A DNA stretch of 64,000 nucleotides from Ruminococcus flavefaciens AE3010 (lineage in GTDB: Bacteria; Bacillota; Clostridia; Oscillospirales; Ruminococcaceae): contig NZ_JAGT01000001.1 in the NCBI RefSeq assembly GCF_000526795.1, positions 2,562,501-2,626,500 on the forward strand. The letters run 5' to 3'. Shown here one piece after another: positions 5,305 through 56,965 of this stretch. Position numbers and translations under genes: made by a program. The notes beneath the pieces were generated by a model. It had not been told where the DNA came from, did not search any database, and saw only the letters and a list, made by a program, of their open reading frames with translations. Numbering within the stretch: position 1 is the first letter of the stretch; every line of letters begins with the position of its first letter.

Positions 5305-5533
5305 TGTAGGGGGAGCCCGCCCACGGGCTCCCGAGCCATTAGCCATTAGATTGTAGGGGCGGATATTATCCGCCCGCGAAAACGGGGCGATGTTGGCATA
5401 GCCTCCTACACATGGTTTCGGCATAATCGTATGGTGACCTGCGGACGCCCAAAGGGCGCCCCTACATGGCTGCATTGATATACCATGATTTTATAAAGCG
5501 GCATACACGGGCGGATATTATCCGCCCCTACAA
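5305..5533. repeat. GTAGGGG modular palindromic repeat block 1
   Basis: Several short palindromic modules joined together: GTAGGGGGAGCCCGCCCACGG, GTAGGGGCGGATATTATCCG, GGGGCGATG...GCATAG, GCGGACGCCCAAAGGGCGCC and a terminal ATTATCCGCCCCTAC. Two copies of CCATTAG and one ATTGTAG (5336-5356, period 7) run into GTAGGGG. No gene is present. The block lies between the rplM leader and the xylanase promoter. Confidence 0.75.
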
Positions 5534-5617
5534 GCTGACAGCTGATTTGGACTGACCATTTTTGAGCATGTTATAAAGGCAATCTCACCATTTATTGCTG
5601 ACTGTCATTAGTCCTCA

Positions 5618-5646
5618 TTGACTTATTTGCACAAATATGATACAAT
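5618..5646 (+). promoter_or_regulatory. xylanase promoter
   Basis: TTGACT (5618-5623), 17-base spacer, TACAAT (5641-5646), 36 bases before the ATG of the GH10 gene. Confidence 0.8.
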
Positions 5647-5681
5647 AAATACACAAAAATTTATTTTTGGAGGAATTAAAA

Positions 5682-7790
5682 ATGAGAGGAAAAAACACTA
5701 AGAGACTGTTAGCAGGCGTTATGGGTGCAGCAATGGCGCTTACAGCTGCAGTTTCGTCTGTACATGCGGCAGTACCCGCAGATGTACAGCTCACAGGCAA
5801 CAAATTCGCAGACTCCAAAGAGGGTAAGGTAGTTTACGAGTGCGGATTCGAGAGCGAGGCAGATCTCGAGCACTGGTCAAACAGAGGCGGCGACGACACA
5901 ACAAAGCTTACCATATCAGCCGATGCAGCAAAGAGCGGCGACAGCGGTCTTGCAGCTACAGACAGAGGCGACACATGGCACGGTCCCGCATTCAGAATGG
6001 ACGGCTTCCTTGAGCCCGACACTCAGTACTATTTCTCATGCTCAGTAAGAGGCGAGTGGTACACAAATACTACCCTCAGCTTCCAGTTCAGCGTTGACGG
6101 CGAGACTTCGTACTCTAACCTCAAGCAGAATATTCAGGCTACAAGCGGCGGCGGAAACAGCTGGGCAGAGATAAAGAACATACCTATCAGCTACTCAGAG
6201 GGTATGGAAGGCGTATATGTTTACTTCGAGGGCGGTCAGGAGTCCATATTCATCGACGATGTAAAGATCACTGAGGCAGCTAAGGTGGATATCGAAAGCG
6301 ATCTCCCGTCACTCAGCGAGATATACAAGGACAAGTTCAAGATCGGTACAGCACTTTCTCCCGAGGATATGTCCTCACAGCCCTTCATGGATCTTCTCCA
6401 GAAGCACTTCGGCGAGAGCATCACAGTCGGCAACCAGATGAAGCCCGACTACGTTCTCAACAAGACTGCTACACTCAAATACTTAGAGGAGACAGGCGAC
6501 GACGAGACTCCTCAGATAAGCTTTGCACAGGCTAAGCCTGTTCTCAACTACGCAAGAAAGTACGGTATCCCCGTAAGAGTCCACACTCTTGTATGGCACA
6601 GCCAGACTCCCGAGTGGTTCTTCAAGGAGGACTTCGACGAGAAGAAGGATTACGTTTCTCCCGAAAAGATGAAGAAGCGTATGGAGAACTACATCAAGAG
6701 CTTCTTCACAACACTTACAGAGCTCTATCCCGACGTTGACTTCTATGCCTGCGACGTTGTAAACGAGGCATGGACAGACGACGGAAAGCCCCGTGAGGCA
6801 GGTCACTGTTCACAGTCCAACAACTACGGCGCTTCCGACTGGGTTGCTGTATTCGGCGACAACTCATTCATCGACTACGCTTTCGAGTATGCAAGAAAGT
6901 ATGCTCCCGAGGGCTGCAAGCTCTACTACAACGACTTTAACGAGTACATGACAGGCAAGATGACAGCTGTATGCGAAATGGCAGAGAGACTCAAGAAGGC
7001 AGGCAATATCGACGGTATCGGTATGCAGTCTCACCTTGACGTAAGGCAGAGCCTTGACGCTGCATTCCCGTCTATCAGCATGTACGAGAACGCATTAAAG
7101 ACCTATACTTCACTGGGCCTCGACGTTCAGATCACAGAGCTTGACGCTACAGTTCAGGAGAACTCAGGCGACAAATATTTCGACATACAGGCTAAGTACT
7201 ACAAGAGCCTCTTCGACCTCTACGAGAAGTACAGCGACAAGATCTCAGCAGTTATCTTCTGGGGAATCACAGACCCCAAGAGCTGGAGAGCTTCACAGAA
7301 TCCGCTTATCTTCGACAAGGCGTTCATGGCTAAGCCCGCATTCAAGTCCATCGTTGAGGGCAAGACAGCTTCCGACCCTGTAAGAACTACTATCGCAGGC
7401 GGCAGCAAGGTAACTACCACAACAACAACTTCTGTTACAACTACTACAACTTCCGATGTAACTACAGCAACTACATCTGTAACTACAGCAGACAATACAA
7501 CAGTGACTACAACACTGCCAAAGGATATGCCTGACGTAAAGCAGTACGGTGACGCAAACGACGACGACGGAATCGATATGGGCGACGTTGTTATCGTTAT
7601 GCAGGCTCTTGCAAACCCCAACAAGTACGGTATGGAGGGTACAGACGACCACCATATCACAAAGCAGGGCTGGGTAAACGCTGATATCATCGGTACAAGC
7701 TCAGGCGTTACAACAGACGATGCGCTTGCAATTCAGGAGTATCTCCTTAAAAAGCGCACATCTCTTACACCTCCGCCACCTGAGGCTTGA
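5682..7790 (+). CDS. secreted GH10 endo-beta-1,4-xylanase with N-terminal CBM and dockerin
   Basis: Secreted xylan-degrading enzyme of 702 aa. Order: signal peptide (about 1-30, ending VHAA), a beta-sandwich carbohydrate-binding module resembling CBM22 or CBM4/9 (about 49-200, VVYECGFES...FIDDVKI), a GH10 barrel (about 215-575), a Thr-rich linker, and a type I dockerin (about 618-695; loops GDANDDDGIDMGD and GVTTDDALAIQ). The catalytic acid/base is Glu362 (DVVNEAW) and the nucleophile Glu486 (ITELDAT). The ATG at 5682 is chosen because TTGGAGG lies 9 bases upstream; an in-frame TTG at 5667 is part of that site. It has its own promoter and terminator. The dockerin implies attachment to a cellulosome scaffoldin not encoded here. 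Confidence 0.95.
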   Translation: MRGKNTKRLLAGVMGAAMALTAAVSSVHAAVPADVQLTGNKFADSKEGKVVYECGFESEADLEHWSNRGGDDTTKLTISADAAKSGDSGLAATDRGDTWHGPAFRMDGFLEPDTQYYFSCSVRGEWYTNTTLSFQFSVDGETSYSNLKQNIQATSGGGNSWAEIKNIPISYSEGMEGVYVYFEGGQESIFIDDVKITEAAKVDIESDLPSLSEIYKDKFKIGTALSPEDMSSQPFMDLLQKHFGESITVGNQMKPDYVLNKTATLKYLEETGDDETPQISFAQAKPVLNYARKYGIPVRVHTLVWHSQTPEWFFKEDFDEKKDYVSPEKMKKRMENYIKSFFTTLTELYPDVDFYACDVVNEAWTDDGKPREAGHCSQSNNYGASDWVAVFGDNSFIDYAFEYARKYAPEGCKLYYNDFNEYMTGKMTAVCEMAERLKKAGNIDGIGMQSHLDVRQSLDAAFPSISMYENALKTYTSLGLDVQITELDATVQENSGDKYFDIQAKYYKSLFDLYEKYSDKISAVIFWGITDPKSWRASQNPLIFDKAFMAKPAFKSIVEGKTASDPVRTTIAGGSKVTTTTTTSVTTTTTSDVTTATTSVTTADNTTVTTTLPKDMPDVKQYGDANDDDGIDMGDVVIVMQALANPNKYGMEGTDDHHITKQGWVNADIIGTSSGVTTDDALAIQEYLLKKRTSLTPPPPEA

Positions 7791-7835
7791 GAAAAAGGCG
7801 CAGAATTCCGCTGAACCAACATGATATAGCTTATA

Positions 7836-7868
7836 GGGCTGCACGGACAAACCGTGCAGCCCTTTTTG
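7836..7868 (+). terminator. xylanase gene terminator
   Basis: Hairpin GGGCTGCACGG / CCGTGCAGCCC with a 5-6 base loop followed by TTTTT, 46 bases after the stop codon. Confidence 0.92.
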
Positions 7869-8150
7869 TAGGGGCGCCCTTTGGGCGTCCGCAGGTCACC
7901 ATACGATTATGCCGAAACCATGTGTAGGGGCGATGCTTTTTGTAGGGGCGGATAATATCCGCCCGCGAAACACGTTACGTAACAAATGGGACGTCGAGGA
8001 CGCCGTCCCCTACAGTCGGTCATTTGTGGTTTTATGGGTATTGACGGGCGGCGAAACTCCCAACAGGAGCCGCGACCCTCTGTCAGCTTCGCTGACATCT
8101 CCCTACACTGTAGGGAGTAACCCTGTACTACAGGGAGTCACCGCCCCTAC
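7866..8150. repeat. GTAGGGG modular palindromic repeat block 2
   Basis: No gene. Modules in order: GTAGGGGCGCCCTTTGGGCG, GTAGGGGCGATG, GTAGGGGCGGATAATATCCG, GGGACGTCGAGGACGCCGTC, then a 107-base unit (8044-8150) starting ACGGGCGGCGAAACTCCC and ending CCGCCCCTAC. The last unit recurs in inverted orientation at 9774-9880. Confidence 0.78.
8044..8150 (+). repeat. left arm of 107-bp inverted repeat around proS
   Basis: The reverse complement of this stretch matches 9774-9880 at 105 of 107 positions with no gaps. It contains TCAGCTTCGCTGA and CCCTACACTGTAGGG palindromes and ends in CCCCTAC. Confidence 0.9.
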
Positions 8151-8178
8151 ACTCTCAACTCTCAATTCTCAACTCTCA
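8151..8178 (+). repeat. heptamer array abutting the proS inverted repeat
   Basis: Four units of 7 bases: ACTCTCA, ACTCTCA, ATTCTCA, ACTCTCA. They begin directly after CCCCTAC and end 13 bases before the proS -35 box. Confidence 0.85.
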
Positions 8179-8191
8179 ACTAAAAATACGT

Positions 8192-8220
8192 TTGACATTC
8201 TCCATAATAAATGATATAAT
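8192..8220 (+). promoter_or_regulatory. proS promoter
   Basis: TTGACA (8192-8197), 17-base spacer, TATAAT (8215-8220). The leader to the ATG is only about 35 bases, too short for a T-box riboswitch. Confidence 0.9.
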
Positions 8221-8260
8221 AATTGTATCTATTGAAATATAACGGAAAGAGGTCATATTT

Positions 8261-9703
8261 ATGGCAAAAGATAAAAAGCTGGTATCCGAGATAACCTCTA
8301 TGGACGAGGATTTCGCTCAGTGGTATACCGACATTTGCAAAAAGGCAGAGCTTATCGAATATACAAGCGTTAAGGGCTGTATGGTAATACGTCCCTACGG
8401 CTACGCTATCTGGGAGAATATGCAGCATATCCTCGATACCACATTCAAGGAACTGGGTCACGAGAACGTTTGCATGCCTATGTTTATCCCCGAGAGCCTT
8501 CTCCAGAAGGAAAAGGATCACGTTGAGGGCTTCGCACCCGAGGTTGCATGGGTAACTCACGGCGGCAACGAGAAGCTTGAGGACAGACTCTGTGTTCGCC
8601 CTACCTCTGAGACACTTTTCTGCGAGCACTATGCTAATATCGTTCATTCCTACCGCGACCTGCCAAAGCTCTACAATCAGTGGGTAAGCGTTGTGCGCTG
8701 GGAAAAGACCACACGTCCTTTCCTCCGTTCAAGAGAGTTCCTGTGGCAGGAGGGTCATACTATCCACGCAACAGCTGAGGAGGCTATCGAGGAAACAGAG
8801 CGCATGCTCAACGTATACGCTGATTTCTGCGAGAAGTCCCTTGCTATGCCTGTTGTAAAGGGTAAAAAGACAGAGAGCGACAAGTTCGCAGGAGCTGTCT
8901 CCACCTACGCTATCGAAGCTCTTATGCATGACGGCAAGGCTTTACAGGCTGGTACCTCACACTATTTCGGCGACGGCTTTGCAAAGGCTTTCGGCATCGA
9001 GTATACAGACAAGGAAAACAAGAGAGTTAATCCTCACCAGACAAGCTGGGGCGTTACAACACGTCTTATCGGCGCAGTTATCATGACACACGGCGACAAC
9101 AGCGGTCTTGTGCTCCCGCCTGCTGTAGCTCCGATACAGGCAGTTATCGTGCCTATCGCACAGCACAAGGAGGGCGTTCTCGACAAGGCAGGAGAGCTTC
9201 TTAACGAACTCAAAGCCGCAGGTATCAGAGTTAAGCTTGACGACAGTGAGAACTCACCCGGCTGGAAGTTTGCAGAGTACGAGATGAAGGGCGTACCTGT
9301 TCGTATCGAGATAGGTCCCCGTGATATCGAGGAAAATCAGTGCATCGTAGCTGTTCGTTACAGCGGCGAGAAGAAGACAGTCGCACTGGGCGACCTTGCA
9401 GTATACGTAAAGGCTCTTCTCGAAAAGGAGATACCCGAGGGTATGTTCAACAAGGCTGCTGAGAACCGCGCAAACAGAACATATGCCTGCACAACTATCG
9501 ACGAGATAAACAAGTCTCTCGAAAAGGGCGACGGCTTCGTAAAGGCTATGTGGTGCGGCGAGGAAGCCTGCGAGGACGAGGTCAAGGAAAAGACAGGCGT
9601 AGGCTCAAGATGTATCCCATTCGATCAGGAGCAGATAAGCGACAAGTGCGTATGCTGCGGCAAGCCTGCAAAGTGCATGGTATACTGGGGCAAGGCTTAT
9701 TGA
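8261..9703 (+). CDS. proS: prolyl-tRNA synthetase, archaeal/eukaryotic-like type
   Basis: Class II aminoacyl-tRNA synthetase that charges tRNA-Pro, 480 aa. It is the short form without the editing insertion of the E. coli type (about 570 aa). Seen: motif 2 region [13 protein letters not shown] and [24 protein letters not shown], motif 3 region [17 protein letters not shown], an anticodon-binding domain (about 285-390), and the C-terminal zinc domain typical of this type with Cys at [16 protein letters not shown] and the ending YWGKAY. Start ATG follows AAAGAGG at good spacing. The gene is bracketed by a 107-bp inverted repeat, and has its own perfect promoter but no clear hairpin terminator. 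Confidence 0.96.
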
Positions 9704-9707
9704 TCAG

Positions 9708-9776
9708 CCATTAGCTATCAGCCTTTAGCCATTAGCTTGCAGGGACGGCTGGTTTAATTCGTAATTCGGAATTGTA
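9708..9776 (+). repeat. two period-7 arrays after proS
   Basis: First array 9708-9742: CCATTAG, CTATCAG, CCTTTAG, CCATTAG, CTTGCAG, running into GGACGG. Second array 9756-9776: AATTCGT, AATTCGG, AATTGTA, running into GGGGCGG of the right inverted-repeat arm. Every unit is exactly 7 bases. Confidence 0.8.
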
Positions 9777-9880
9777 GGGGCGGTGACTCCCTGTAGTACA
9801 GGGTTACTCCCTACAGTGTAAGGAGATGTCAGCGAAGCTGACAGAGGGTCGCGGCTCCTGTTGGGAGTTCCGCCGCCCGT
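9774..9880 (-). repeat. right arm of 107-bp inverted repeat around proS
   Basis: Inverted partner of 8044-8150, 105/107 identical. It begins GTAGGGGCGGTGACTCCC and ends CGCCGCCCGT. Confidence 0.9.
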
Positions 9881-10065
9881 TAAAACACACTATGACATTT
9901 GTGGGGACGCCCATTGGGCGTCCGCAGCAATAAATCACAAATGATTGCAAATAACGGGGCGATGCCTATATCGCCCCGTTGGTTTTATTGTTATATCTCG
10001 GGCGGATATTATCCGCCCCTACATACTGTATTTTGTGGGACGTCGAGGACGCCGTCCCCTACAAT
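9881..10065. repeat. GTAGGGG modular palindromic repeat block 3
   Basis: No gene. Continuation of the repeat block after the inverted-repeat arm: GGGGACGCCCATTGGGCG, GGGGCGATGCCTATATCGCC, GGGCGGATATTATCCGCCCC and GGGACGTCGAGGACGCCGTC, ending CCCCTACAATGAGC just before the rnhA start region. Confidence 0.75.
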
Positions 10066-10076
10066 GAGCTAAGAAG

Positions 10077-10526
10077 GTGAGTAACATAAAAACAGTTGAA
10101 ATATTCACAGACGGTGCCTGCAGCGGCAATCCGGGGCCTGGGGGATACGGCGTAGTGCTTCGCTTCGGCAGCGTTGAAAAGGAGCTTTCGGGCGGCGACA
10201 GCGCCACCACCAACAACAGAATGGAGCTTCTCGGCGTAATAACGGGACTTTCCGCGCTGAAAGAGCCCTGCAAGGTAATACTCACCACCGACAGCAAGTA
10301 CGTGGTGGACAGCGTAACAAAGGGCTGGGTCTACGGCTGGAAGAAAAAGGGCTGGATAAAGTCCGACAAGAAGCCTGCCCTCAACGTTGACCTGTGGGAG
10401 CAGCTGCTGCCCTTGCTTGAAAAGCACGACGTTACCTTCAACTGGGTAAAGGGTCACGCAGGACACCCCGAAAACGAGCGCTGCGACCGCCTTGCAGTCG
10501 AGCAGAGGGACATACACGCAAAATAA
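10077..10526 (+). CDS. rnhA: ribonuclease HI
   Basis: Endonuclease that cuts the RNA strand of RNA-DNA hybrids, 149 aa, close to the E. coli length. The catalytic carboxylates are visible in [14 protein letters not shown] (Asp), RMELLGV (Glu), TTDSKYVVD (Asp) and ERCDRLA (Asp), with the flexible-loop His in GHAGHPENE and the basic handle [12 protein letters not shown]. The start is a GTG at 10077 with only weak Shine-Dalgarno pairing (AAGAAGG); no better in-frame start precedes FTDGAC. The EF-Tu domain 2 protein follows 33 bases later and may be cotranscribed. A repeat block lies right upstream, so the promoter is unclear. Confidence 0.93.
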
Positions 10527-10559
10527 CGGAACAAGACTTACTTAACGGGGAGTGATATC

Positions 10560-10964
10560 ATGGGAATTTTAGACAACATCAAGAATATGATCTTTAACCG
10601 CGAGCCCAAGGACGACAGCTTTATGACCGATGACGAAAAGGAGCTCCGCGAGTACGAGCAGTACTATACCCCACAATCGGGAGTTGCCGAGGGAACTTAC
10701 TCCGAGTTCGTAGTGAGCGATGTGTTTTCTATCACAGGCAGGGGAACTGTGGTCACAGGTACGGTCACAGGCGGAGTTTTTCGCGTGGGCGACGAGGTGC
10801 TTTTGGTTCACGGCAATAACGACGGCATACCCACGACTATAGTCGGCATAGAGCAGTTCCGCAAGATATGCGACAGCGTATCCGAGGGCGCGAATGCAGG
10901 ATTTATCCTCAAAGATGTTGACAGGAAACAGGTATCACGCAACGATATCATCAAGAAGAAGTAA
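10560..10964 (+). CDS. small protein with a stand-alone EF-Tu domain 2
   Basis: Protein of 134 aa. After an acidic, charged N-terminus (about 1-48) the remainder matches the beta-barrel domain 2 of translational GTPases: FSITGRGTVVTGTVTGGVFRVGDEV, then TTIVGIEQFRK and EGANAGFILKDVDRKQVSRND, closely parallel to EF-Tu domain 2. There is no GTPase domain and no domain 3, so it is not a truncated EF-Tu with residual P-loop. GGGGAGTGATATC precedes the ATG. It follows rnhA by 33 bases. The role is unknown; binding to tRNA ends, other EF-Tu partners or membrane stress roles are all guesses. Confidence 0.75.
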   Translation: MGILDNIKNMIFNREPKDDSFMTDDEKELREYEQYYTPQSGVAEGTYSEFVVSDVFSITGRGTVVTGTVTGGVFRVGDEVLLVHGNNDGIPTTIVGIEQFRKICDSVSEGANAGFILKDVDRKQVSRNDIIKKK

Positions 10965-10970
10965 CAGCAT

Positions 10971-11066
10971 GGCGCCCAAAGGGCGCCTGCAAGTGAGTAG
11001 TGAGTAGAAAGTAGTAGGGGCGCCGTTTCGGCGCCCGCAAACGGGTGCACACTGTGCGCCCCTACA
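10971..11066. repeat. GTAGGGG modular palindromic repeat block 4 with heptamers
   Basis: Begins GGCGCCCAAAGGGCGCC. Then comes an array of period 7 (10993-11013: GTGAGTA, GTGAGTA, GAAAGTA) running straight into GTAGGGGCGCCGTTTCGGCG, and the block ends CGCCCCTAC. Confidence 0.75.
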
Positions 11067-11074
11067 CATTTTTG

Positions 11075-11106
11075 CAAAAAAAGACGGCATAAAGCCGTCT
11101 TTTTTA
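11075..11106 (-). terminator. bidirectional terminator
   Basis: Hairpin AAGACGGC / GCCGTCTT with a 5-base loop, flanked by A-tract and T-tract, so it can stop both the leftward LRR operon and rightward transcription from rnhA. Confidence 0.88.
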
Positions 11107-11111
11107 TGTTA

Positions 11112-27463: not shown

Positions 27464-29032
27464 ATGGCTAAGAACAACAGGCGCGGTCTCGGCGCTGCGC
27501 TCAGAAATCAGGATAAAAAAGATGAAGCTGTCATTTCGGGTCCCGCAATAATCAAGCAGCTCAAAAGGCATCTTGCAGCATGGCTGGTGATCGCTATCAT
27601 CGCGGGTCTTCTCACATTCTGCTATTCGGCATACAAGACTTTTTCCGCAAGAACTCCCGTAAGCGCTCTTGTAAGCTTTACATATACGGGCATTGAAAAG
27701 GGTCTTGACCCCAAGGGACGCAAGTTCGAGATCGAAAGCATGAAGAATACCAAGGTAGTTGAAAATGCTCTTAAAGAAGTCGGACTCGGAACTGATAAGA
27801 TCGAGGATATAAGAACAGGCATCAGCTTTGATTACAAGATACCCCAGTCGGCTTACGATCAGCTCACAGCTCACAGCAGTGTAATGGATCAGGCCTCCAA
27901 CGGAAGTCTCTCGGCTGCACAGGCTATGCTTGATACAAAGTACTATCCCACACAGTTCACTGTAAAGCTTGACCTGGGCAAGGCAGGGCTCAGCAGACAG
28001 GAGGGCGCTGACTTCCTTAATGCTCTGCTCAAAAAGTACGGCGAGCACTTCTATGAGGAGTACGGCTACAACGAGCCCCTCGGTACAGCTGTCACAAGTC
28101 TTGAATACAAGGACTATGACTATGCTCAGCAGGTTGACCTTTTCAGAAACTCACTGAAAACAGTCAAGAATTACCTCGACAGCCTTGCAAAGGACGACAA
28201 TACAACATTCCGTTCAAGCGTTACAGGCTATACATTCAATGATCTTTCGGATTATGCAAAGACTATCACAAGCATCGACCTTGACAGGATCTCATCTTAT
28301 GTTTCTGTAAACAACGTAACAAAGGATAAGGATTCCGCTCTTGCTTACTACAATTACAGAATAGAGAACCTCAACCGCGATAAGGACGAATACACAGAGC
28401 GCCTTGCTGCTCTTGACACATCTATCGCTCAGTATCAGAAGGACGTTATTCAGGTATTCGGCAACGGTACAGACAATACAAATACCGAATCCACACTTCA
28501 TTCCGAGCAGTACGACTCGTTGTTCAAGCAGAAGACAAGCGTTGAAGCAAGCCTTGCACAGACAAAGCAGGATATAGACTACTATATCTCGAGACGCGAT
28601 GCTCTCCAGAACAACAAGAACAGCTCAAAGGCTAACGTTGACAAGGTAGAGGCTGACATCGCAGCCCTCAGCAATAAGGTAAATGATCTTGTTGATCTCA
28701 CAAAAAAGACAGCAAGCGACTACTATGAGAATGTACAGTTCGCAAACGCTTACAATATACTTGTTCCCGCAGCAAATTCAGTAGGCGCAGGCATTAAGCA
28801 GGCTGTAAACGATTCCATAAAGACTATCGTTATAGTTGAGTTCTTTATCCTTGCTGTTTACCTTGCTGCTGCATTTATCGGTGCTGTTAAGGCAGCCTGC
28901 GGCAGAAAGGCTGCAAAGGCAGGCGCTGACGACGACGATGATGATGACTTTGAAGAGATCGTTGACGCAGTTAAGGAAAAGGCAGAAAAAGCCAAAAAGG
29001 CTGTAAACAATAAAAAGAACAAGAAAAAGTAA
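27464..29032 (+). CDS. Wzz-like membrane protein with two transmembrane helices
   Basis: Protein of 522 aa laid out like polysaccharide chain-length or co-polymerase proteins: a basic cytoplasmic N-terminus, one transmembrane helix (about 38-58, AAWLVIAIIAGLLTFCYSAY), a large mostly helical extracytoplasmic domain with coiled-coil stretches (about 290-430), and a second helix near 448-470 (TIVIVEFFILAVYLAAAFIGAV). The tail has seven Asp in a row and a Lys-rich end. Sequence motifs are not strong enough to prove the family. It has its own promoter and terminator. A role with the CpsB/CapD genes in exopolysaccharide assembly is inference; no tyrosine kinase domain is attached. Confidence 0.65.
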   Translation: MAKNNRRGLGAALRNQDKKDEAVISGPAIIKQLKRHLAAWLVIAIIAGLLTFCYSAYKTFSARTPVSALVSFTYTGIEKGLDPKGRKFEIESMKNTKVVENALKEVGLGTDKIEDIRTGISFDYKIPQSAYDQLTAHSSVMDQASNGSLSAAQAMLDTKYYPTQFTVKLDLGKAGLSRQEGADFLNALLKKYGEHFYEEYGYNEPLGTAVTSLEYKDYDYAQQVDLFRNSLKTVKNYLDSLAKDDNTTFRSSVTGYTFNDLSDYAKTITSIDLDRISSYVSVNNVTKDKDSALAYYNYRIENLNRDKDEYTERLAALDTSIAQYQKDVIQVFGNGTDNTNTESTLHSEQYDSLFKQKTSVEASLAQTKQDIDYYISRRDALQNNKNSSKANVDKVEADIAALSNKVNDLVDLTKKTASDYYENVQFANAYNILVPAANSVGAGIKQAVNDSIKTIVIVEFFILAVYLAAAFIGAVKAACGRKAAKAGADDDDDDDFEEIVDAVKEKAEKAKKAVNNKKNKKK

Positions 29033-40383: not shown

Positions 40384-40386
40384 CAG

Positions 40387-40490
40387 CCTTTAGCCATTAG
40401 CCGTTAGCCTTTAGCTATAGGGGCGGATAAAATCCGCCAATGCTATTGACGGGGCGATGTGGGCATCGCCCCCCTACTTAGTTCTTAGTT
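40387..40490. repeat. GTAGGGG-type repeat block 6 with heptamers on both sides
   Basis: Four heptamers CCTTTAG, CCATTAG, CCGTTAG, CCTTTAG (40387-40414) run into CTATAGGGGCGGATAAAATCC. The block continues ATTGACGGGGCGATG and ends GCCCCCCTA. At the other end CTTAGTT occurs twice (40477-40490), overlapping the stop codon of the lipoprotein gene. Confidence 0.78.
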
Positions 40491-41855
40491 ATACTTCTTT
40501 ATCTCCTCGTCGATAATGGGAGACATTCTGTCGCGGAGCTCCTCCCATGAGCCTACGGGAGAGCTGCCCTCCAAAAAGGCTGTGGATATATTGTCCATAG
40601 CGCCTCTTGTGTCGAAATTGCAGTCGCCGTCCTTCAGCATAGTCTCACCCATGCCGTAGCCGAAATCAAAGACAGGCTGGGACTTTGCGATGTTTTTATA
40701 CTCCTGAAGTGCGTTGTACTGCTCCTCGGTCATGGTCTTGAGAGCCTGTTCCTTTGCCTTGGCTGTGAACTTCTCGTCGGAAGCCGCAATGCGCTCGCAT
40801 TTGAGATATGTTGCAACAGCTCTGCCCTTTGAGGAATTCTTCACCAGCATTCTTGCGTCGTAGTCGCAGGCAACGTGGTACTTGTCGGTCTCGGGACACC
40901 TCGGGAAAGGAACTATCATAAGGTCTGCCTCGGAGAATATCCTGTTTGATGTAGCCAGAGTGCTGTCGCTCGAAGCGTAGAACAGAGTGCTGTAATCTGT
41001 CTGGAATGAGCCTTTGAGACTCTTGTTGTACAGCCAGCGCGACTGGATATCCTGCATTATCACCTCTGCTCTGGCTATCTTGGGGTCTGCGATGTTGTTC
41101 TTGAAGCTGTCACCCTCAAGGCTTACAACGGAGGTGCCGCTTGAAGCCAGCATAGCTCTGCCGTAGAAGCCGCTTATGCCGAAGTGGTGGAGCGAGGACT
41201 CCTTTAATGCGAATGTATTTATCATATTATGGAAGACGTTCCAGTCCCATTTGCCGTCCTTGTAGAGAGTATACGGGTCGTCGATGCCCGAGTCCTTCAT
41301 AAGCTTTCTGCTGTAGGTCAGTATCTGGGGCTCCGAAACAGAAAACGGGACCACATAGTGCTTGCCCTTGTATGCGAACATATCTATGACAGGAGACATA
41401 TCCTCCCACATTCCGTCGTCCACGCCCATATCCTTGAAATAGGAGTCAAGGGGCTGGAACCTGTCCTTGATAACGCCCTCGGGGAACACGCTCATATCGT
41501 AGGGGAACATGTCCACTTCTTCGCCTGCCTGTATCATCTGGTCGAGCTTTGTGAACTTCTCCTCGGGGGAAACGGGCACAAAGGTAATGCTGCCGCCGTA
41601 GACGTCCTCAAATATGGACAGAGCCGTGGACTTTGCGCCCTCCTCGGGATTGAGGTCGAAATCCGACAGCCATACTATATCCATGCTGCCGCTTTCGGTG
41701 ACAGTATGGGAGCTGCTCTCCTTTTTGCCTGTAGAAACAACAGATTCGGGAGAACTGTCGGAAGATGTATCATTTTTCTTTTTGCTGCACGAAGCTGCGG
41801 AGAAGACGGTTCCCACTGCGAGAACGGCAGCAAATATCCTTTTCATATCTGACAT
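40485..41855 (-). CDS. extracellular solute-binding lipoprotein (ABC-type)
   Basis: Lipoprotein of 456 aa with signal peptide and lipobox (about 5-22, GTVFSAASC), a polar Ser/Lys spacer, then a fold typical of family 1 sugar-binding proteins: MDIVWLSDFDL, a middle MIQAGEEVDMFPYDMSVFPEGVI, and the hinge segment GKHYVVPFSVSEPQILTYSRKLM. The ATG at 41855 is chosen for AAAGGAGT 7 bases upstream; the longer frame from 41903 lies over the promoter region. No permease or ATPase gene is adjacent, so partners must be elsewhere. The promoter is perfect and a palindrome lies just after it, hinting at repression control. Confidence 0.85.
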   Translation of the reverse strand: MSDMKRIFAAVLAVGTVFSAASCSKKKNDTSSDSSPESVVSTGKKESSSHTVTESGSMDIVWLSDFDLNPEEGAKSTALSIFEDVYGGSITFVPVSPEEKFTKLDQMIQAGEEVDMFPYDMSVFPEGVIKDRFQPLDSYFKDMGVDDGMWEDMSPVIDMFAYKGKHYVVPFSVSEPQILTYSRKLMKDSGIDDPYTLYKDGKWDWNVFHNMINTFALKESSLHHFGISGFYGRAMLASSGTSVVSLEGDSFKNNIADPKIARAEVIMQDIQSRWLYNKSLKGSFQTDYSTLFYASSDSTLATSNRIFSEADLMIVPFPRCPETDKYHVACDYDARMLVKNSSKGRAVATYLKCERIAASDEKFTAKAKEQALKTMTEEQYNALQEYKNIAKSQPVFDFGYGMGETMLKDGDCNFDTRGAMDNISTAFLEGSSPVGSWEELRDRMSPIIDEEIKKYN

Positions 41856-41883
41856 AGAACTACTCCTTTCGGACACTGTACAG

Positions 41884-41937
41884 TACATGCACAGTATGAG
41901 CATATATTATTATACTCGTTTCGGATAGGCGTGTCAA
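41884..41937 (-). promoter_or_regulatory. promoter and operator-like palindrome of the lipoprotein gene
   Basis: Minus-strand TTGACA (41932-41937), 17-base spacer, TATAAT (41909-41914). Between the -10 box and the start is the perfect 10-base palindrome ACTGTACAGT with a related half-site ACTGTGCATGT beside it, a plausible repressor site. Confidence 0.75.
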
Positions 41938-45033: not shown

Positions 45034-45038
45034 GAAAC

Positions 45039-48760: not shown

Positions 48761-48765
48761 ATATT

Positions 48766-48853: not shown

Positions 48854-50428
<1,575 letters not shown>

Positions 50429-50499
50429 TCAAAAAAGGTCGGTTTTTGGCGAAAAAGCAGTTTGTTATATTAAAGTAATTCAGTGTTAAAGCAGTAATA

Positions 50500-51717: not shown

Positions 51718-52887
51718 TTAAACCTCCCTGCGGCAGATATTGCCGTTTACCATAACGAGTACGGGCTCGGACATGAGGTCGAGTGGATTGTCGCCCTTTC
51801 TGTAGAGCTGTAAATCCGCGTCCTTTCCCTCTGTGAGAGAGCCTGTGGTATCGTCTATGCCGAGTATCTCGGCAGGATAAACAGTGAGAGTTTTCAGCGC
51901 CTCGTCAAAGTCAAGTCCGCCCTTTACCGCAGCCTGTGCGGAGAGGGGGAGGTACTGTATTGGGATAACGGTATGGTCTGTGCAGATAGCTATCTTTACG
52001 CCGCTGTCGTGGAGGACTGAGGCGTTTTTCAGTTCAAGTCCGCGCATTTCGGGCTTGCAGCGGTCGCAGATAACGGGACCGCATATGACGGGGATATTCT
52101 CCTCGGCGATGATGTCGGCTATCTTGTGACCCTCTGTTCCGTGGATAATTACGGCGTCAAGGCTGAACTCCTTGGCAATGCGCATAGCCGTGCAGATATC
52201 GTCGGCACGGTGGCAGTGGAAGAAAGCCTTTTCCTTGCGCTCAAGCAGGGGCATGAGGGCTTCGCACTTGATATCATACTCAGGCGGGTCGTAGTTCTCG
52301 CTGTCGGAGTAATAGCTGTCCATATCGTGAACATAGCGGCGGGCTTTGTAAAGTCCCTCGCGTATGAGAGCGGTTATCGCCATACGGGTTATGGGAGTCT
52401 CCTCGCGTCCGTTGTAGACGTTCTTGGGGTTCTCGCCCAGAGCGAATTTGATGCCGCAGCTTCTTATGAGCATATCGTCCACGCGTCTGCCATATGTTTT
52501 TACAGCGGCTATCTCACCGCCGCAGGCATTGGCGCTTCCGGGACTTGAAGCCGCCGCGGTGATCCCGCGCATACGGGCTTCCTCAAAGCAGCGGTCAAAG
52601 GGATTGATACCGTCAACGGCTCTCATCTGCGGAGTGAAGGGGTCTGTGGACTCGTTGCAGTCATCGCCCTCAAAGTCCAGACCGTCCTCGATTATGCCAA
52701 GGTGATTGTGGGCGTCGATGAATCCGGGGAGGAGCATACCGCCCTTTGCGTCTATGCTGTCCTTATCGTCACGGGGCAGAAAACCGCTGCCCACGTTTTT
52801 TATTTTGCCGTTTTGGATATCTATCCAGCCGTCTTTTATTACTCCTAAGGGACCCATGGTATGGATCTCAGCGTTATAAATAAGCAT
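51718..52887 (-). CDS. amidohydrolase-superfamily metal-dependent hydrolase
   Basis: Cytosolic hydrolase of 389 aa resembling imidazolonepropionase-like amidohydrolases. Seen: the N-terminal beta-sandwich start YNAEIHTM, the metal-binding PGFIDAHNHLG (about 56), ACGGEIAAVKTYG, a later His pair region FFHCHRADD (about 218) and VIIHGTEGHK (about 242), and the metal Asp in KIAICTDHTV (about 305). No neighbouring gene of histidine breakdown is present, so the substrate is unknown. It starts six bases after aroK's stop region and is translationally adjacent to the LRR-dockerin gene. Confidence 0.87.
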   Translation of the reverse strand: MLIYNAEIHTMGPLGVIKDGWIDIQNGKIKNVGSGFLPRDDKDSIDAKGGMLLPGFIDAHNHLGIIEDGLDFEGDDCNESTDPFTPQMRAVDGINPFDRCFEEARMRGITAAASSPGSANACGGEIAAVKTYGRRVDDMLIRSCGIKFALGENPKNVYNGREETPITRMAITALIREGLYKARRYVHDMDSYYSDSENYDPPEYDIKCEALMPLLERKEKAFFHCHRADDICTAMRIAKEFSLDAVIIHGTEGHKIADIIAEENIPVICGPVICDRCKPEMRGLELKNASVLHDSGVKIAICTDHTVIPIQYLPLSAQAAVKGGLDFDEALKTLTVYPAEILGIDDTTGSLTEGKDADLQLYRKGDNPLDLMSEPVLVMVNGNICRREV

Positions 52888-52893
52888 ACAGGC

Positions 52894-53391
52894 TCACTTT
52901 CTCAGGATAGCAGCTATCTTTTCCGCATTTTCAACGGGGCTGCCGTTACATTCCAGTCTTATGGTGGAGTGTGCAAGATAAACGTCTCTGCGTGAGTTGT
53001 AGAGAGTCTCCAGCTCCTCCTTTGTGGATTTTACAACGATAGGACGGTTTGTGTCGTCCTTTATGCGCTCGTAGCATACCTCAAAGGGAACATCGAGGAA
53101 TACCACAGCCGCACCTGCGTCCTTTGCAGCCTTTGCGGTATCGGGATTGAGCATGGCACCGCCGCCGCAGGCAGCAACAGTGGTCTTGCCGCAGAGGGAC
53201 TTGACTATCTCGGCCTCGGTCTGACGGAAGAAGGGCTCGCCCTTTTTCTCAAATATCTCGGGGATAGTCATTTCAAGAGTGCGGACGATGAGGTCGTCCG
53301 TGTCGCAGAAGCCGCAGCCCAGTTTCTTTGCCGCAAGCTTTCCTATAGTTGATTTTCCGCAGCCCATAAAGCCGCATAAAAATACAGTCAT
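52894..53391 (-). CDS. aroK: shikimate kinase
   Basis: Phosphorylates shikimate with ATP on the way to chorismate, 165 aa, normal length. Seen: Walker A GFMGCGKSTIGK (about 7), CDTDDLI (substrate Asp), FFRQTEAEIV (Arg/Glu), the ACGGGAML loop (about 78) and the lid region KDDTNRPIV. The ATG at 53391 has AAGGAGAATTAT upstream, overlapping the stop of the acetyltransferase gene; a longer frame lacks a site. It lies in an operon with aroE two genes upstream, so two steps of the shikimate pathway are together. Confidence 0.95.
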   Translation of the reverse strand: MTVFLCGFMGCGKSTIGKLAAKKLGCGFCDTDDLIVRTLEMTIPEIFEKKGEPFFRQTEAEIVKSLCGKTTVAACGGGAMLNPDTAKAAKDAGAAVVFLDVPFEVCYERIKDDTNRPIVVKSTKEELETLYNSRRDVYLAHSTIRLECNGSPVENAEKIAAILRK

Positions 53392-53401
53392 ATAATTCTC
53401 C

Positions 53402-53857
53402 TTATTTCTGCTTGATGCGAACAAGCTTAACCAGCGGCACCCATTCGTCCTCCATCATCTTCTCGCCTGTGAGCTCGAAGCCGTGACGCTTGTAAAAGGC
53501 GATGCCGCGTTCATTGTATTCCAGCGCCCAGAGGTTGTCCGCACCGAATTTCTCAACGGCAAAGCCGAGAAGCTCTGCGCCTATGCCGCTGTTCTGGAAC
53601 TGAGGCTCAACGTAGAGCTTGACCACCTCCGTGCCGTTTACGCGGATAATGCCCTTGATAACGCCGCCGTCGTCGTAGACATAGGTGTTTGTCAGCTCCT
53701 CCGAGCCCTCGGTGTACTCCGCCGCCATATCCACAACGTTCAGCTCAGAGAAATAGAACTCATCGTTGCGGAAAAAGGGGTAGAAGTTCACGCGGTAGTT
53801 GGTTATGATCATCTCGGCGATGCGTGAAGCGTCGCCTGCCTTTGCGGGGCGTATCAT
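53402..53857 (-). CDS. GNAT-family N-acetyltransferase
   Basis: Acetyl-CoA-dependent transferase of 151 aa. Seen: N-terminal IRPAKAGDASRIAEMI, the central strand VVKLYVEPQFQNSGIGAELL with the acetyl-CoA pyrophosphate loop QNSGIG, and the C-terminal LEYNERGIAFYKRHGFE motif. The substrate is not apparent; many such enzymes modify small amines or proteins. It sits between aroE (1-base gap) and aroK (10-base gap) and is surely cotranscribed, but it has no known part in the shikimate pathway. Confidence 0.9.
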   Translation of the reverse strand: MIRPAKAGDASRIAEMIITNYRVNFYPFFRNDEFYFSELNVVDMAAEYTEGSEELTNTYVYDDGGVIKGIIRVNGTEVVKLYVEPQFQNSGIGAELLGFAVEKFGADNLWALEYNERGIAFYKRHGFELTGEKMMEDEWVPLVKLVRIKQK

Positions 53858-53858
53858 A

Positions 53859-54695
53859 TCACTTGTTCATGCTGTCAACAGCGTTCTCCACGTCGGAGAT
53901 TATCCTTGCGATATCCTCAGTTCTGAAGCTTCCGCCGTACCATATCTCATGAGCCTTTACAGCCTGATATACCAGCATCGAAGCGCCGCCTACGGCTATT
54001 TTGCCGAGGGCACGGGCTTTCTTCATGAGGAGGGTCTCCTTGGGATTGTAGATAACGTCGAATACGCTGCCGCTGTTTTCGATTATGGTATCGCTTACTG
54101 CGCAGGCATCCACCTTTGGGTACATACCTACGGGAGTAGCGTTTATGAGCAGGTCGTAGCTGCCGTCAAGTGTGGATATATCGGCGATCCTCACGGAAGC
54201 ACCGCTGCACTTTGCCAGTATCTCAGCCATGAGTATCTGGGCATTCTTTACGTCCTGCGGGATAACTGCAAGGGTGATGTTTCCGCCGTGACGGGCTACC
54301 TCGATAGCTATCATTCTGCCGACGCCGCCGCAGCCAAGTATAGCCACATTGCCGCCGATAGGGAGCTGCTCTGCTGAGCGCAGGAAGCCGTCGCAGTCGG
54401 TGTTGTAGCCAACAAGATGACCGTTGTCGTTGTTGATGCAGTTCACGGAGTTGTAGCGCTGAGCGCTTTCAGCAAGCTCGTCCACCAGTGAGATAACAGC
54501 CTGCTTGTGGGGGATAGTGACATTGAGACCGCGGAGCGCTTCAAGAGTGCTGCGGCTGCCTGCCATATCCTCGGGAGCTATGTCGATGAGCTCGTATGAT
54601 GTATCTGCAAGTCCGCTGAGAGCGAACAGCTTTTCGTGGATAAGAGGGGACATTGAGTGTCCCAGGGGGTGTCCTATAAGTGCAAATTTATTCAT
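53859..54695 (-). CDS. aroE: shikimate dehydrogenase
   Basis: NADPH-dependent reduction of 3-dehydroshikimate to shikimate, 278 aa, normal length. Seen: GHPLGHSMSPLIHEKLF (substrate Ser pair), NVTIPHKQAV with the catalytic Lys, NTDCDGFLRS with the catalytic Asp, the nucleotide-binding GCGGVGRMIAIEVA near 135, and INATPVGMYPK. Its start overlaps the fabD stop as ATGA, so it is translationally coupled to fabD. aroK lies downstream after the acetyltransferase gene. Confidence 0.96.
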   Translation of the reverse strand: MNKFALIGHPLGHSMSPLIHEKLFALSGLADTSYELIDIAPEDMAGSRSTLEALRGLNVTIPHKQAVISLVDELAESAQRYNSVNCINNDNGHLVGYNTDCDGFLRSAEQLPIGGNVAILGCGGVGRMIAIEVARHGGNITLAVIPQDVKNAQILMAEILAKCSGASVRIADISTLDGSYDLLINATPVGMYPKVDACAVSDTIIENSGSVFDVIYNPKETLLMKKARALGKIAVGGASMLVYQAVKAHEIWYGGSFRTEDIARIISDVENAVDSMNK

Positions 54696-55600
54696 GATAA
54701 TGCTCCTTCAAGTGTTTCCATATTTTCAACGTTTACTGCTGTCACGTCCTTGAGTGTCTTCTTTACCAGACCGGTGAGAGTTCTTCCGGGACCGAACTCA
54801 ACGAACTTGTCAGCGCCTGCCTCCTGCATAGCTGCAAGCTCAGATGTGAAGCGCACAGGTGATACGATGTGCTTTGCAAGCATGGAAGCCATATCCGAGA
54901 AGTCTGTCAGCTCGCCGCCTGTGAGATTTGAGTAGTACTTCACTTGGGGAGCCTTGAACTCGATAGTCTTTGCTGTTTCGTAGAACTTGTCCGCAGCAGG
55001 CTGCATGAGCTTTGAATGGAAAGCGCCTGCAACGTTGAGCGGGATAACTCTTGCCTTCATTTCTGCGAATATCTCGCTTACCTCGGCGATACCCTCGGGA
55101 GTGCCTGCGATAACGGTCTGAACAGGTGAGTTGTAGTTTACGGCTGTGACATATTCCTTAGCCTCGCCGCACACTCTCTCAACTTCCTCGGGAGCTATCT
55201 TCATGATAGCTGCCATAGCGCCCTTTGAAGAAGCTGTAGCCTCCTCCATAGCGGCAGCTCTTGCCTTTATAAGGCGGAATGCGTCCTCAAGGGATATCAT
55301 TCCCGAAGCGTACATTGCAGCGTACTCTCCGAGGGAGTGACCTGCAACTCCGTCGAATGTGAAGCCCTTTGACTGAGCAGCTTTCAGGCACACGATGGAA
55401 GTTGCCATGATAGCGGGCTGAGAGTTGATAGTCCTCGATAATTCATCAAGGGGAGCATTGAAGCATATCTCTTTCAGGTCTGTGCCCAGTATTTCGGAGC
55501 CTGTCTCGTAAACGGAGAGAAGCTCGGGCATTGCTTCTGCGATGTCCTTGCCCATTCCCTCATACTGAGAGCCCTGTCCCGAAAATAGTGAAATTGTCAT
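54692..55600 (-). CDS. fabD: malonyl-CoA:ACP transacylase
   Basis: Loads malonyl groups onto acyl carrier protein for fatty acid elongation, 302 aa. Seen: FSGQGSQYEGMGKD at the start, the nucleophile Ser in GHSLGEYAAM (about 89), Arg in FRLIKARAAAM, the catalytic His in GAFHSKLMQ (about 198) and the end region EFGPGRTLTGLVKK. AAGGAAGTTTAATATT precedes the ATG. It is divergent from fabH, unlike the usual position inside the rightward fab cluster, and heads an operon with aro genes. A 285-base gap separates it from fabH. Confidence 0.96.
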   Translation of the reverse strand: MTISLFSGQGSQYEGMGKDIAEAMPELLSVYETGSEILGTDLKEICFNAPLDELSRTINSQPAIMATSIVCLKAAQSKGFTFDGVAGHSLGEYAAMYASGMISLEDAFRLIKARAAAMEEATASSKGAMAAIMKIAPEEVERVCGEAKEYVTAVNYNSPVQTVIAGTPEGIAEVSEIFAEMKARVIPLNVAGAFHSKLMQPAADKFYETAKTIEFKAPQVKYYSNLTGGELTDFSDMASMLAKHIVSPVRFTSELAAMQEAGADKFVEFGPGRTLTGLVKKTLKDVTAVNVENMETLEGALS

Positions 55601-55885
55601 AATATTAAACTTCCTTTCTGTATGTTATATACAAAGTAATGGTGAAAATTCACTTATGTATTATTGTAAATTTGTGAGAAATGCCGATATTTTGTCTTTA
55701 GCTTGTCAAAGTGCTGAAATATCGTTGCAAAAAAACTCAAAATGATTTACAATATATTATGTGTGGTATTCTGTCTGCTCATAAATATTCCCCTGCAAAC
55801 GGGATACCGACATTACTACTATAACATAATTTTTTGGTTTTTACAACCATGTTTTATAATTTTGTTGATTCTAAGGAGCTAATTA
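55601..55885. promoter_or_regulatory. divergent fabD/fabH control region
   Basis: AT-rich, no gene. A plus-strand TTGCAA (55725-55730), 17-base spacer and TACAAT (55748-55753) is a fair promoter for fabH; a TATAAT nearer to fabH at about 55853-55858 has a poor -35. No convincing leftward promoter for fabD was settled. No known FapR or FabT site was recognised. Confidence 0.45.
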
Positions 55886-56875
55886 ATGGGTATAAGCATT
55901 TTGGGAACGGGCAGCTATGTGCCTGACCAGATAATGACAAACGACGATTTTACCCGATTTGTTGAGACTGACGACGAGTGGATACGCACAAGAACGGGCA
56001 TATCGCAGCGCCGTATGGCAGGCTGGGAGCCCACATGGTATATGGGCGCACAGGCTTCTCTGAAAGCTGTAAAGGCGTCGGGCATCGACCCTGCGGACAT
56101 CGGGCTTATCATATCCTGTACTGCTACATCGGACTTCCTCACCCCCAGCATGGCGAGCGTTATCCAGCATGAAGTGGGCGCTGTCAATGCTGCTGCCTTT
56201 GATATGAACGCAGCCTGTTCGGGCTTCGTATACGCCACAGACGTGGCAAGGCGCTTCCTTGAGACAGATGATTCACTGAAATACGTTCTTGTTGTTGCCA
56301 ATGAGGCGCTTTCACGCTTCCTTGACTTCACCGACAGATCGTCATGCATACTTTTCGGCGACGGTGCTGCCGCAGTCATACTGGAAAAGAGCGACAAGCT
56401 TTATTCATCGGCGCTGTGCTCTGACGGCAGCGGCGCGGGACTGCTCTGTGCAAGATCTCTGAACGTAGCTCCCGAGGTTGCAGTTGAGAAAAGCGATTTT
56501 GAGGATCCGTTCCCCGATGTTCCCATACACAAGCTTCAGCAGAACGGAAAAGAGGTATACAAGTTCGCAGTAGCGGCCCTGCCAAAGTCCTTCGAGCTTG
56601 CAGCCGCAAAGGTGGGCATCACCAAGGACGATATCGACTGGTTCGTACCTCATCAGGCTAATATAAGAATTATCGAGACAGCTGCCAAGAAGCTGGGCGC
56701 ACCTATGGAGAAGTTCATCGTGACTCTCGATCACTACGGAAATACCTCCAGCGCTTCAATTCCTCTTGCTCTCTGCGAGGGCATAGAAAAGGGACTTATC
56801 AAGCGCGGACAGAAGATAGCCCTCATAGGCTTCGGAGCAGGTCTTACCTACGGCGGAATTATTTGTGAGTATTAA
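55886..56875 (+). CDS. fabH: 3-oxoacyl-ACP synthase III
   Basis: Starts fatty acid synthesis by condensing acyl-CoA with malonyl-ACP, 329 aa, normal length. Catalytic triad visible: Cys in NAACSGFVYA (about 110), His in VPHQANIRI (about 255) and Asn in HYGNTSSASIP (about 285); also TDDEWIRTRTGISQRR at the N-terminus. AAGGAGCTAATTA precedes the ATG. First gene of the rightward fab-acc operon. A heptamer array and a GTAGGGG block start right at its stop codon and separate it from fabK. Confidence 0.96.
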   Translation: MGISILGTGSYVPDQIMTNDDFTRFVETDDEWIRTRTGISQRRMAGWEPTWYMGAQASLKAVKASGIDPADIGLIISCTATSDFLTPSMASVIQHEVGAVNAAAFDMNAACSGFVYATDVARRFLETDDSLKYVLVVANEALSRFLDFTDRSSCILFGDGAAAVILEKSDKLYSSALCSDGSGAGLLCARSLNVAPEVAVEKSDFEDPFPDVPIHKLQQNGKEVYKFAVAALPKSFELAAAKVGITKDDIDWFVPHQANIRIIETAAKKLGAPMEKFIVTLDHYGNTSSASIPLALCEGIEKGLIKRGQKIALIGFGAGLTYGGIICEY

Positions 56876-56965
56876 GAGCTAATAACTAAGATGTAGGGGC
56901 TGGCGTCCCCGACAGCCCGTGAGTTTTGAACGTATCGCGGGACGTCGGGACGCCGTCCCCTACAA
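56872..56965. repeat. heptamers plus GTAGGGG block 7, inside the fab operon
   Basis: Heptamers TTAAGAG, CTAATAA, CTAAGAT (56872-56892) begin at the fabH stop codon and run directly into GTAGGGGCTGGCGTCCCCGA. The block ends GGGACGCCGTCCCCTAC. It lies between fabH and fabK, so it is probably transcribed. Confidence 0.78.

What the first reader, a model, noticed from the sequence alone, without database searches (positions are those of the whole stretch)
5336..56892. Period-7 tandem arrays that always run into GTAGGGG repeat elements
At several separate places short arrays of exact 7-base units lie directly against one end of a GTAGGGG element. They are: 5336 (CCATTAG x2, ATTGTAG); 8151 (ACTCTCA x4 with one change, after CCCCTAC); 9708 (CCATTAG, CTATCAG, CCTTTAG, CCATTAG, CTTGCAG); 9756 (AATTCGT, AATTCGG, AATTGTA); 10993 (GTGAGTA x2, GAAAGTA); 40387 (four CCNTTAG-type units); 40477 (CTTAGTT x2); 56872 (TTAAGAG, CTAATAA, CTAAGAT). 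Units agree within a locus but often differ between loci, while the period and the abutment stay fixed. At 40477 and 56872 the array overlaps a stop codon, as if the heptamer were copied from local sequence. This suggests that whatever inserts or extends these elements works in 7-base steps, for example by repeated target duplication or templated slippage. I know of heptamer repeats in cyanobacteria but not of this coupling.
Basis: partly seen in the sequence, partly recalled or inferred. Interest (0 to 1): 0.8.

Follow-up and report, generated by a model that had tools for sequence, protein, structure and literature searches.

The report
Heptamer arms around bacterial hairpin repeats
In a probable Ruminococcus genome, short runs of 7-letter DNA repeats sit right against small hairpin-shaped repeats, most likely because they are the outer arms of dispersed palindromic elements, which ties two poorly understood kinds of bacterial repeat together.

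Summary
All eight arrays are there. In 864 kb of the genome, intergenic arrays have period 7 in 50 cases and any other period from 4 to 13 in at most 4. Of 57 lag-7 arrays 27 lie within 20 nt of GTAGGGG; no array of another lag 4-13 does. GTAGGGG elements are GTAG-foot hairpins (REP type), and a RAYT transposase gene is in the genome. But only 31 of 124 such hairpins carry a recognised array; arrays also flank a second, unrelated hairpin-dimer core, on both sides and inverted; unit classes recur at many loci, so they are not copied from local sequence; and in a same-genus relative 12 of 12 fetched copies of a dispersed palindrome carry near-identical heptamer arms. Best reading: heptamer arrays are arms of dispersed palindromic elements with hairpins in the middle; array length drifts in 7-bp steps (three sites). 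Arrays abound without hairpins in a cyanobacterium, so the hairpin inserter is not a general 7-step machine.

The parts
5334..5349 (+). Heptamer array class A (TTAGCCN type) in the linker between the 3' end of one GTAG hairpin and the GTAG of the next
5353..5375 (+). GTAG hairpin (REP) GTAGGGGCGGATATTATCCGCCC
8151..8182 (-). Heptamer array class C (on the - strand GTTGAGA/ATTGAGA units running into GTAGGGG)
8144..8150 (-). GTAGGGG foot of a hairpin cluster
9706..9738 (+). Heptamer array class A running into a degenerate foot GCAGGGACGG
9756..9773 (+). Heptamer array class D (AATTCGT, AATTCGG, AATT) ending at GTAGGGG; the same junction AATT|GTAG occurs in the cyanobacterium Amazonocrinis nigriterrae
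9774..9783 (+). GTAG foot and start of a hairpin cluster (GTAGGGGCGG)
10993..11013 (+). Heptamer array class B (GTGAGTA, GTGAGTA, GAAAGTA)
11014..11065 (.). Inverted pair of GTAG hairpins (11014-11036 + and foot at 11059-11065 -)
40385..40415 (+). Heptamer array class A (TTAGCCN x4) running into degenerate foot TATAGGGGCGG at 40416
40478..40490 (-). Heptamer array class E (CTAAGAA type) ending at GTAGGGG 40471-40477; overlaps the stop codon of ORF 40485..41903 (-)
56872..56892 (+). Loose heptamer array class E (TTAAGAG, CTAATAA, CTAAGAT); overlaps the stop codon of ORF 55886..56875 (+)
56893..56963 (.). Inverted pair of GTAG hairpins (feet 56893-56899 + and 56957-56963 -)

Best explanation
The period-7 arrays are the outer arms (the stretch 5' of the foot) of small dispersed palindromic elements whose middle holds hairpin repeats. 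Complete elements have the same unit class, inverted, on both sides; worn or rebuilt ones keep an array on one side only, which is the 'array runs into GTAGGGG' picture. The arms travel with the element (shown in one relative), and in place they lengthen or shorten by steps of one or two units (shown at three sites of another pair of relatives). Shown: coupling, orientation rule, two-sided arms of the second kind, dispersal of arms with one element, 7-bp length steps. Inferred: that the one-armed GTAGGGG cases in the window derive from such elements, that RAYT-type single-strand transposition moves them, and that ordinary replication slippage gives the 7-bp steps.
For: Dispersal with arms: 12 of 12 copies fetched from relative G047 (chosen because one search listed paired arrays there) share 73 bp of arm-core-arm, column-block identity 0.93-1.00; 9 of 12 (reading) also share both outer hairpins, 154 bp in all, and outside identity falls to about 0.4. 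No 3-5 nt target duplication in the 7 copies whose ends were parsed; 5 of 12 were not. Two-sided arms: in relative G008 12 of 14 listed + strand TTAGC arrays (11 of 13 elements) have an inverted partner within 150 nt; in the own sample the two-armed type-2 elements agree in class in 5 of 5. Class-B arms surround at least three unlike middles (L325/L326 single hairpin, L327/L328 GTAG dimer, L332 type-2 dimer). Orientation and end: 31 of 124 vs 0 on the other strand; 0 of 28 resume behind the hairpin. Length steps 14, 14, 7 bp: three of the six gap sites printed (the other three are an N run and two poorly alignable places). REP identity: RAYT gene in the genome. Array presence tracks RAYT matches, 21 of 22 vs 8 of 58; genus only 20 of 20 vs 5 of 28, with at least 4 forced changes of the label on a one-gene tree of 30 genomes.
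Against: Two-armed GTAG clusters of the own sample mostly disagree in class (1 agrees, 7 do not, of 8 read; one of the 8 also holds a type-2 foot), so here arms look assembled module by module. L327, which agrees, was fetched because of its two arms. The automatic pair test found only 2 inverted among 12 adjacent pairs in the own sample (chance fraction 0.10). Array class and hairpin stem combine freely (listing), so a fixed array-plus-hairpin unit does not explain the GTAG cases. The variable unit position is not mirrored between the arms (reading). Dispersed arm-plus-core copies were shown in G047, not in the window's own genome. No empty site was found for any window array; the nearest relatives are about 81% identical at the locus compared. 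Some RAYT matches are fragments (G004, G006, G007, G039, G040), 9 of 30 genomes with at least 16 GTAGGGGCG have no array, and RAYT-bearing genomes look larger by eye, so genome size may confound the association.
Confidence: 0.57

Rival explanations
1. Landing pads: heptamer arrays exist first as ordinary tandem repeats, and the single-strand transposase puts GTAG hairpins into them because units such as GTAGTGA or TTAGCCA resemble its target.
For: Fixed orientation and abutment; arrays are common without hairpins elsewhere; L218 (Prevotellaceae) has a hairpin with AATTCGT units on both sides; one own site (L059:19071) has TTAGCC units on both sides.
Against: 0 of 28 arrays that end at a foot show their class again within 45 nt behind the hairpin; most hairpins have no array.
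Confidence: 0.17
2. One reading: insertion or extension of the hairpin element itself makes the heptamers (repeated target duplication or templated slippage in 7-base steps).
For: 7-bp steps, arrays end at the foot on one strand only, and arrays track RAYT matches among relatives.
Against: Same unit classes at many unrelated loci; same arrays around an unrelated core; abundant arrays with little hairpin association in two genomes of other phyla; REPs without arrays in 200 kb of E. coli K-12.
Confidence: 0.08
3. Functional arrays: the repeats are spaced binding sites (for a protein or RNA) kept by selection next to hairpins.
For: Between G008 and G037 aligned arrays are 96-97% and cores 95-98% identical against 89% for distant intergenic DNA and 76% at third codon positions.
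Against: The 40 nt outside the arms are about as conserved (99.5% and 92.5%), and only 18 of 37 and 19 of 28 arrays were aligned, so survivors are biased to conserved sites; arrays show no preference for the sense strand of tandem genes (27 vs 25); no Rfam family at gathering threshold in the window, L046, L056, L313 or L332 lies on the elements.
Confidence: 0.12
4. Stalled replication: polymerase pauses at the hairpin foot and re-anneals one heptamer back, so that arrays grow in place only in front of hairpins.
For: One-sided contact with the foot, 7-bp steps.
Against: Local growth should give local, varied units, but classes are shared; arrays without hairpins elsewhere.
Confidence: 0.05

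Closest known systems
GTAG-tagged REP elements and RAYT transposases (Di Nocera et al. 2013, PMC3733652: abstract, sections 7 and 16 and passages seen)
   Same: Unpaired GTAG foot plus short hairpin, inverted dimers, intergenic clusters, RAYT genes. The paper also reports REP dimers inserted within longer palindromes in A. variabilis and H. neapolitanus and elements within small palindromes in T. roseum, and REPs inside genes (abstract).
   Different: The words Firmicutes, Ruminococc- and heptamer do not occur in its main text as held; here the enclosing arms are tandem heptamers of several classes.
REPINs / MITE-like palindromic elements (PMC3116915: search listing only)
   Same: Short dispersed palindromes with hairpins and no gene of their own, presumably moved in trans.
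   Different: Arms are period-7 tandem arrays; dispersal as a unit was shown here only for the G047 element.
Heptameric repeats of Xanthomonas and Nostoc (PMC4692102: section 10 and passages seen) and TAACTGA repeats of Beggiatoaceae, Cyanobacteria and Bacteroidetes (PMC4679880: abstract seen)
   Same: Intergenic period-7 arrays with degenerate unit positions; section 10 reports 70 cases in one Xanthomonas (186 repeats) and 75 in another (183) of two sites in convergent orientation close together.
   Different: No hairpin element in or beside the arrays is described in the parts I saw.
Small dispersed repeats of Nostoc embedded in tandem heptamers (Elhai et al. 2008; recalled, nothing seen)
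   Same: Small repeats embedded in heptamer arrays.
   Different: Cyanobacteria; relation to GTAG hairpins not compared here.

Membership tests
GTAG REP (RAYT-mobilised) | GTAG foot outside a GC-rich hairpin | tested here: met
   124 of 241 GTAGGG occurrences in 864 kb start a hairpin by the script's rule, some of them probably by chance
GTAG REP (RAYT-mobilised) | High copy number above chance | tested here: met
   GTAGGGGCGG 71+82 in the genome, reversed-pattern control 0; GTAGGGG 22 in the window, 3.70 expected
GTAG REP (RAYT-mobilised) | RAYT gene in the genome with the same REPs at it | tested here: met
   C1:2474027-2474545(-); 747 homologs, a few named RayT by their source; an inverted REP pair lies inside the ORF
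GTAG REP (RAYT-mobilised) | Movement by the RAYT | not testable with these tools
   needs an assay
MITE / REPIN-like element | Many copies with common ends at unrelated sites | tested here: met
   G047 element: arm-core-arm in 12 of 12 copies, both outer ends in 9 of 12; not shown for the window's own arrays
MITE of a DDE transposon | Target-site duplication | tested here: not met
   0 of 7 parsed copies with a 3-5 nt duplication at three offsets; 5 of 12 not parsed
Heptameric simple sequence repeats of bacteria | Period 7 dominant over neighbouring periods in intergenic DNA | tested here: met

The most novel reading that the evidence does not exclude
Period 7 is the signature of one dedicated repeat-making activity shared by several phyla. 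In the five genome samples with arrays, from three phyla, lag-7 arrays outnumber every other lag from 4 to 13 by five-fold or more in intergenic DNA; the same unit and junction (AATTCGTAATT|GTAG) stands before unrelated stems in the window genome and in one cyanobacterial species; and among relatives arrays come and go together with the RAYT transposase. The activity would extend the free 3' end in front of a GTAG foot in 7-nt steps, in the manner of a small telomerase-like or slippage reaction, with the arrays then surviving on their own. (Probability lowered from 0.10 to 0.08 on recount: the shared junction rests on one cyanobacterial species.)
Probability: 0.08. Interest if true: 0.88.

Novelty: new variant of a known kind. 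Interest (0 to 1): 0.52.

Why it matters
Heptamer repeats have been noted in bacteria for decades without an accepted origin, and REP hairpins are a textbook repeat (both recalled, and in the papers seen). Here the two turn out to be parts of the same dispersed palindromes in one genus, with a rule (same strand, ends at the foot, not seen again behind it) and a comparative handle (arrays almost only where a RAYT match is). That makes the origin of heptamers testable in culturable relatives. It also warns against reading array-hairpin contact as proof of a 7-step insertion machine.

Tried and rejected
Strand switch of the hairpins at about 2.5 Mb: noted (and written in the notebook), then rejected and corrected, because that listing stops at 50 forward and 50 reverse places; in the sample the bias is modest (left of the skew change 21+/43-, right 32+/19-, window 11/11).

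Co-mobilisation of one array with one hairpin: rejected for the GTAG type, since array classes stand before many stem variants (listing).

Arrays as RNA-sense signals: no sense bias (27 vs 25), no Rfam match on the elements.

Cross-phylum coupling as a general law: the genome scan (32 stretches) was conditioned on coupling; samples of two of those genomes, taken by contig and coordinate, showed 4% and 17% coupling. The G081 contigs were taken largely from those listed with arrays, so its array density is not a fair estimate, and the two genomes are not random members of their phyla. L219 is weak: its genome (G083) has no longer AATTCGT array.

First tree used loci of mixed orientation and is discarded. 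Adjacent-pair statistic: own genome 2 inverted of 12 pairs, G008 3 of 6, G037 4 of 5, not clear-cut.

Orthologous empty sites for the window's arrays: none found; nearest relatives about 81% identical, and I did not fetch their syntenic stretches.
Full report
What the window holds. The window is G000:C1:2562501-2626500 of a 3.7-Mb genome. That it is Ruminococcus is inferred from source names of some transposase homologs, not from a direct identification. All eight sites are as described. The GTAGGGG elements are hairpins with a GTAG foot and stems of many kinds (GGATATTATCC, GCCCTTTGGGC, GACGGCGTCCTCGACGTCC and others), single, in tandem, or as inverted pairs with the feet outside.

Is the coupling more than chance? 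I took 40 evenly spaced 20-kb stretches plus the window. Soft lag-7 arrays: 57; within 20 nt of GTAGGGG 27, at 21-150 nt 11, farther 19. All other lags from 4 to 13 together have none within 20 nt. In non-ORF DNA lag 7 gives 50 arrays and the next best lag 4; block-shuffled intergenic DNA gives 0-1. A hairpin within 45 nt is seen at 63% of arrays and 6% of random positions.

Rules of the contact. Of 124 GTAGGG hairpins, 31 have a class array within 45 nt on the 5' side and same strand, none on the opposite strand. Of 28 arrays ending within 10 nt of the foot, none shows a unit of the same class in the 45 nt behind the hairpin; permuted labels give 0.23, so this is absence where the landing-pad idea predicts presence, not a depletion below chance. 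The classes were defined by eye on the same sample. Junctions are class-specific: TTAGCTT|GTAG in 6 of 9 class-A cases, AGTA|GTAG in 6 of 11 class-B cases, GAGAGT|GTAG in 2 of 2 class-C cases; AATT|GTAG for class D and GAGAAT|GTAG for the AATTGAG class are my reading.

Arrays away from GTAGGGG. I printed the surroundings of 26 own arrays more than 20 nt away; many lie at a second hairpin dimer, TGGTRTCGC..GCGATA-TTATTTAAATAA-GTCCGC..GCGGACACCA, flanked on both outer sides by arrays of one class in inverted orientation. In relative G008 12 of 14 listed TTAGC arrays have an inverted partner within 150 nt; in the own sample all five two-armed type-2 cases agree in class. Two-armed GTAG clusters mostly do not agree (1 of 8).

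Are the arms mobile? One search listed class-B arrays in relative G047 as pairs at fixed 47-bp spacing; I fetched 12 of those places. Aligned without gaps, arm-core-arm (73 bp) is common to all 12, with block identity 0.93-1.00; the left outer hairpin blocks are 0.88-0.97 and the right ones 0.77-0.83; outside it is about 0.4. By reading, 9 of 12 have both outer hairpins (L315 lacks the left one, L313 and L319 the right one), 154 bp in all. No 3-5 nt target duplication in the 7 copies parsed. Class-B arms surround at least three unlike middles in G000, G017, G019 and G047. So arms can be parts of dispersed palindromes, and middles are exchangeable.

How do arrays change? Between G008 and G037 (third codon positions 76% identical) many arrays stand at the same places. 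Of six gap sites near arrays printed, three are clean differences of 14, 14 and 7 bp; the other three are an N run and two poorly alignable places. In the G008-to-G037 direction, 21 of 51 arrays could be placed and 16 of the 21 have equal length (a few of those are coding or misplaced); the 51 were called with a looser threshold. Aligned arrays are 96-97% identical, distant intergenic DNA 89%; since about half the arrays could be aligned and their outer flanks are about equally conserved, I do not claim selection.

Link to the transposase. The genome has one intact RAYT-like gene and a second match with two stops. Over 80 genomes (own included) three array patterns occur in 22; 21 of these have a RAYT match, against 8 of the 58 without arrays. 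Within the genus 20 of 20 against 5 of 28. In at least five of the array genomes the match is a fragment or broken (G004, G006, G007, G039, G040). On a 30-genome, one-gene tree the array label needs 9 changes, at least 4 forced by well-supported branches, and is not clustered (shuffled mean 10.1), so shared ancestry alone does not explain the association. Genome size and completeness remain confounders. PF01797 alone had missed some of these genes, e.g. in G008.

Other phyla. A scan conditioned on AATTCGT arrays before GTAGRGRCG found 32 stretches: 29 in records named as cyanobacterial genera, two Bacteroidetes records and one labelled Gracilibacteria. Of 33 printed matches 17 have array, then AATT|GTAGAGACG, all in one species, Amazonocrinis nigriterrae, with a stem unlike that of the window genome. 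Samples from two of these genomes show period 7 far ahead of other lags (66 vs at most 6; 105 vs at most 20) but little or no coupling to hairpins (17% vs 8%; 4% vs 2%). E. coli K-12 (200 kb, 9 REPs by one pattern) has no lag-7 array. In these samples hairpins are neither needed nor enough for heptamers.

Judgement. The coupling is real and specific, and in this genus is best read as composite palindromes whose arms are heptamer arrays. The arrays change in 7-bp steps, most simply by slippage. That the hairpin inserter itself works in 7-base steps is not supported. Literature: the listings showed no paper that joins REP hairpins and heptamers in Firmicutes. (the letters GTAGGGGC) matched 440 papers, 15 were listed and none read. 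The library is open-licence only. Elhai et al. 2008 and Mrazek 2007 were not seen; the latter's finding is taken from passages of PMC4692102.

Noticed in passing
G000:C1:2474027-2474545(-), L110:1456-1974; also L338, L339, L340: The RAYT gene carries an inverted pair of REP hairpins inside the ORF, read in frame (VGADIIRP ... GRMISAPT). 4 of 4 loci checked at DNA level have it; of the 120 homologs listed (of 747) 119 have such a motif at the first place, in several REP types (ADIIRP 54, NAALG-like 37, DGVLDVP 25, other V-G-x-P 3, none 1). A transposase gene that contains its own presumed substrate in frame deserves its own study.
   Followed up: partly
G000 C1, 0-1.25 Mb versus 1.25-3.5 Mb: GTAG hairpins look scarce in about one third of the chromosome away from the GC-skew change at about 2.5 Mb: 2 GTAGGGG in 14 sampled stretches below 1.25 Mb; 5 of the 50 reverse-strand GTAGGGGCGG places listed up to 2.40 Mb lie there.
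   Followed up: no
G008/G037 orthologous intergenic regions, e.g. g8_C13 61700-61950: In the sites aligned, intergenic DNA around the composite elements is nearly identical while the flanking genes differ clearly.
   Followed up: partly
G081 (Prevotellaceae MAG, L273-L292): Dense AATTACG/AATTCGT heptamers: 66 lag-7 arrays in 21 kb of non-ORF DNA of the contigs taken, several as inverted pairs with short loops. The contigs were largely chosen from those listed with arrays.
   Followed up: no
window 27860-27877: CAGCTCACAGCTCACAGC, the one exact lag-7 run (of 5 found) in the window that is not beside a hairpin element.
   Followed up: no
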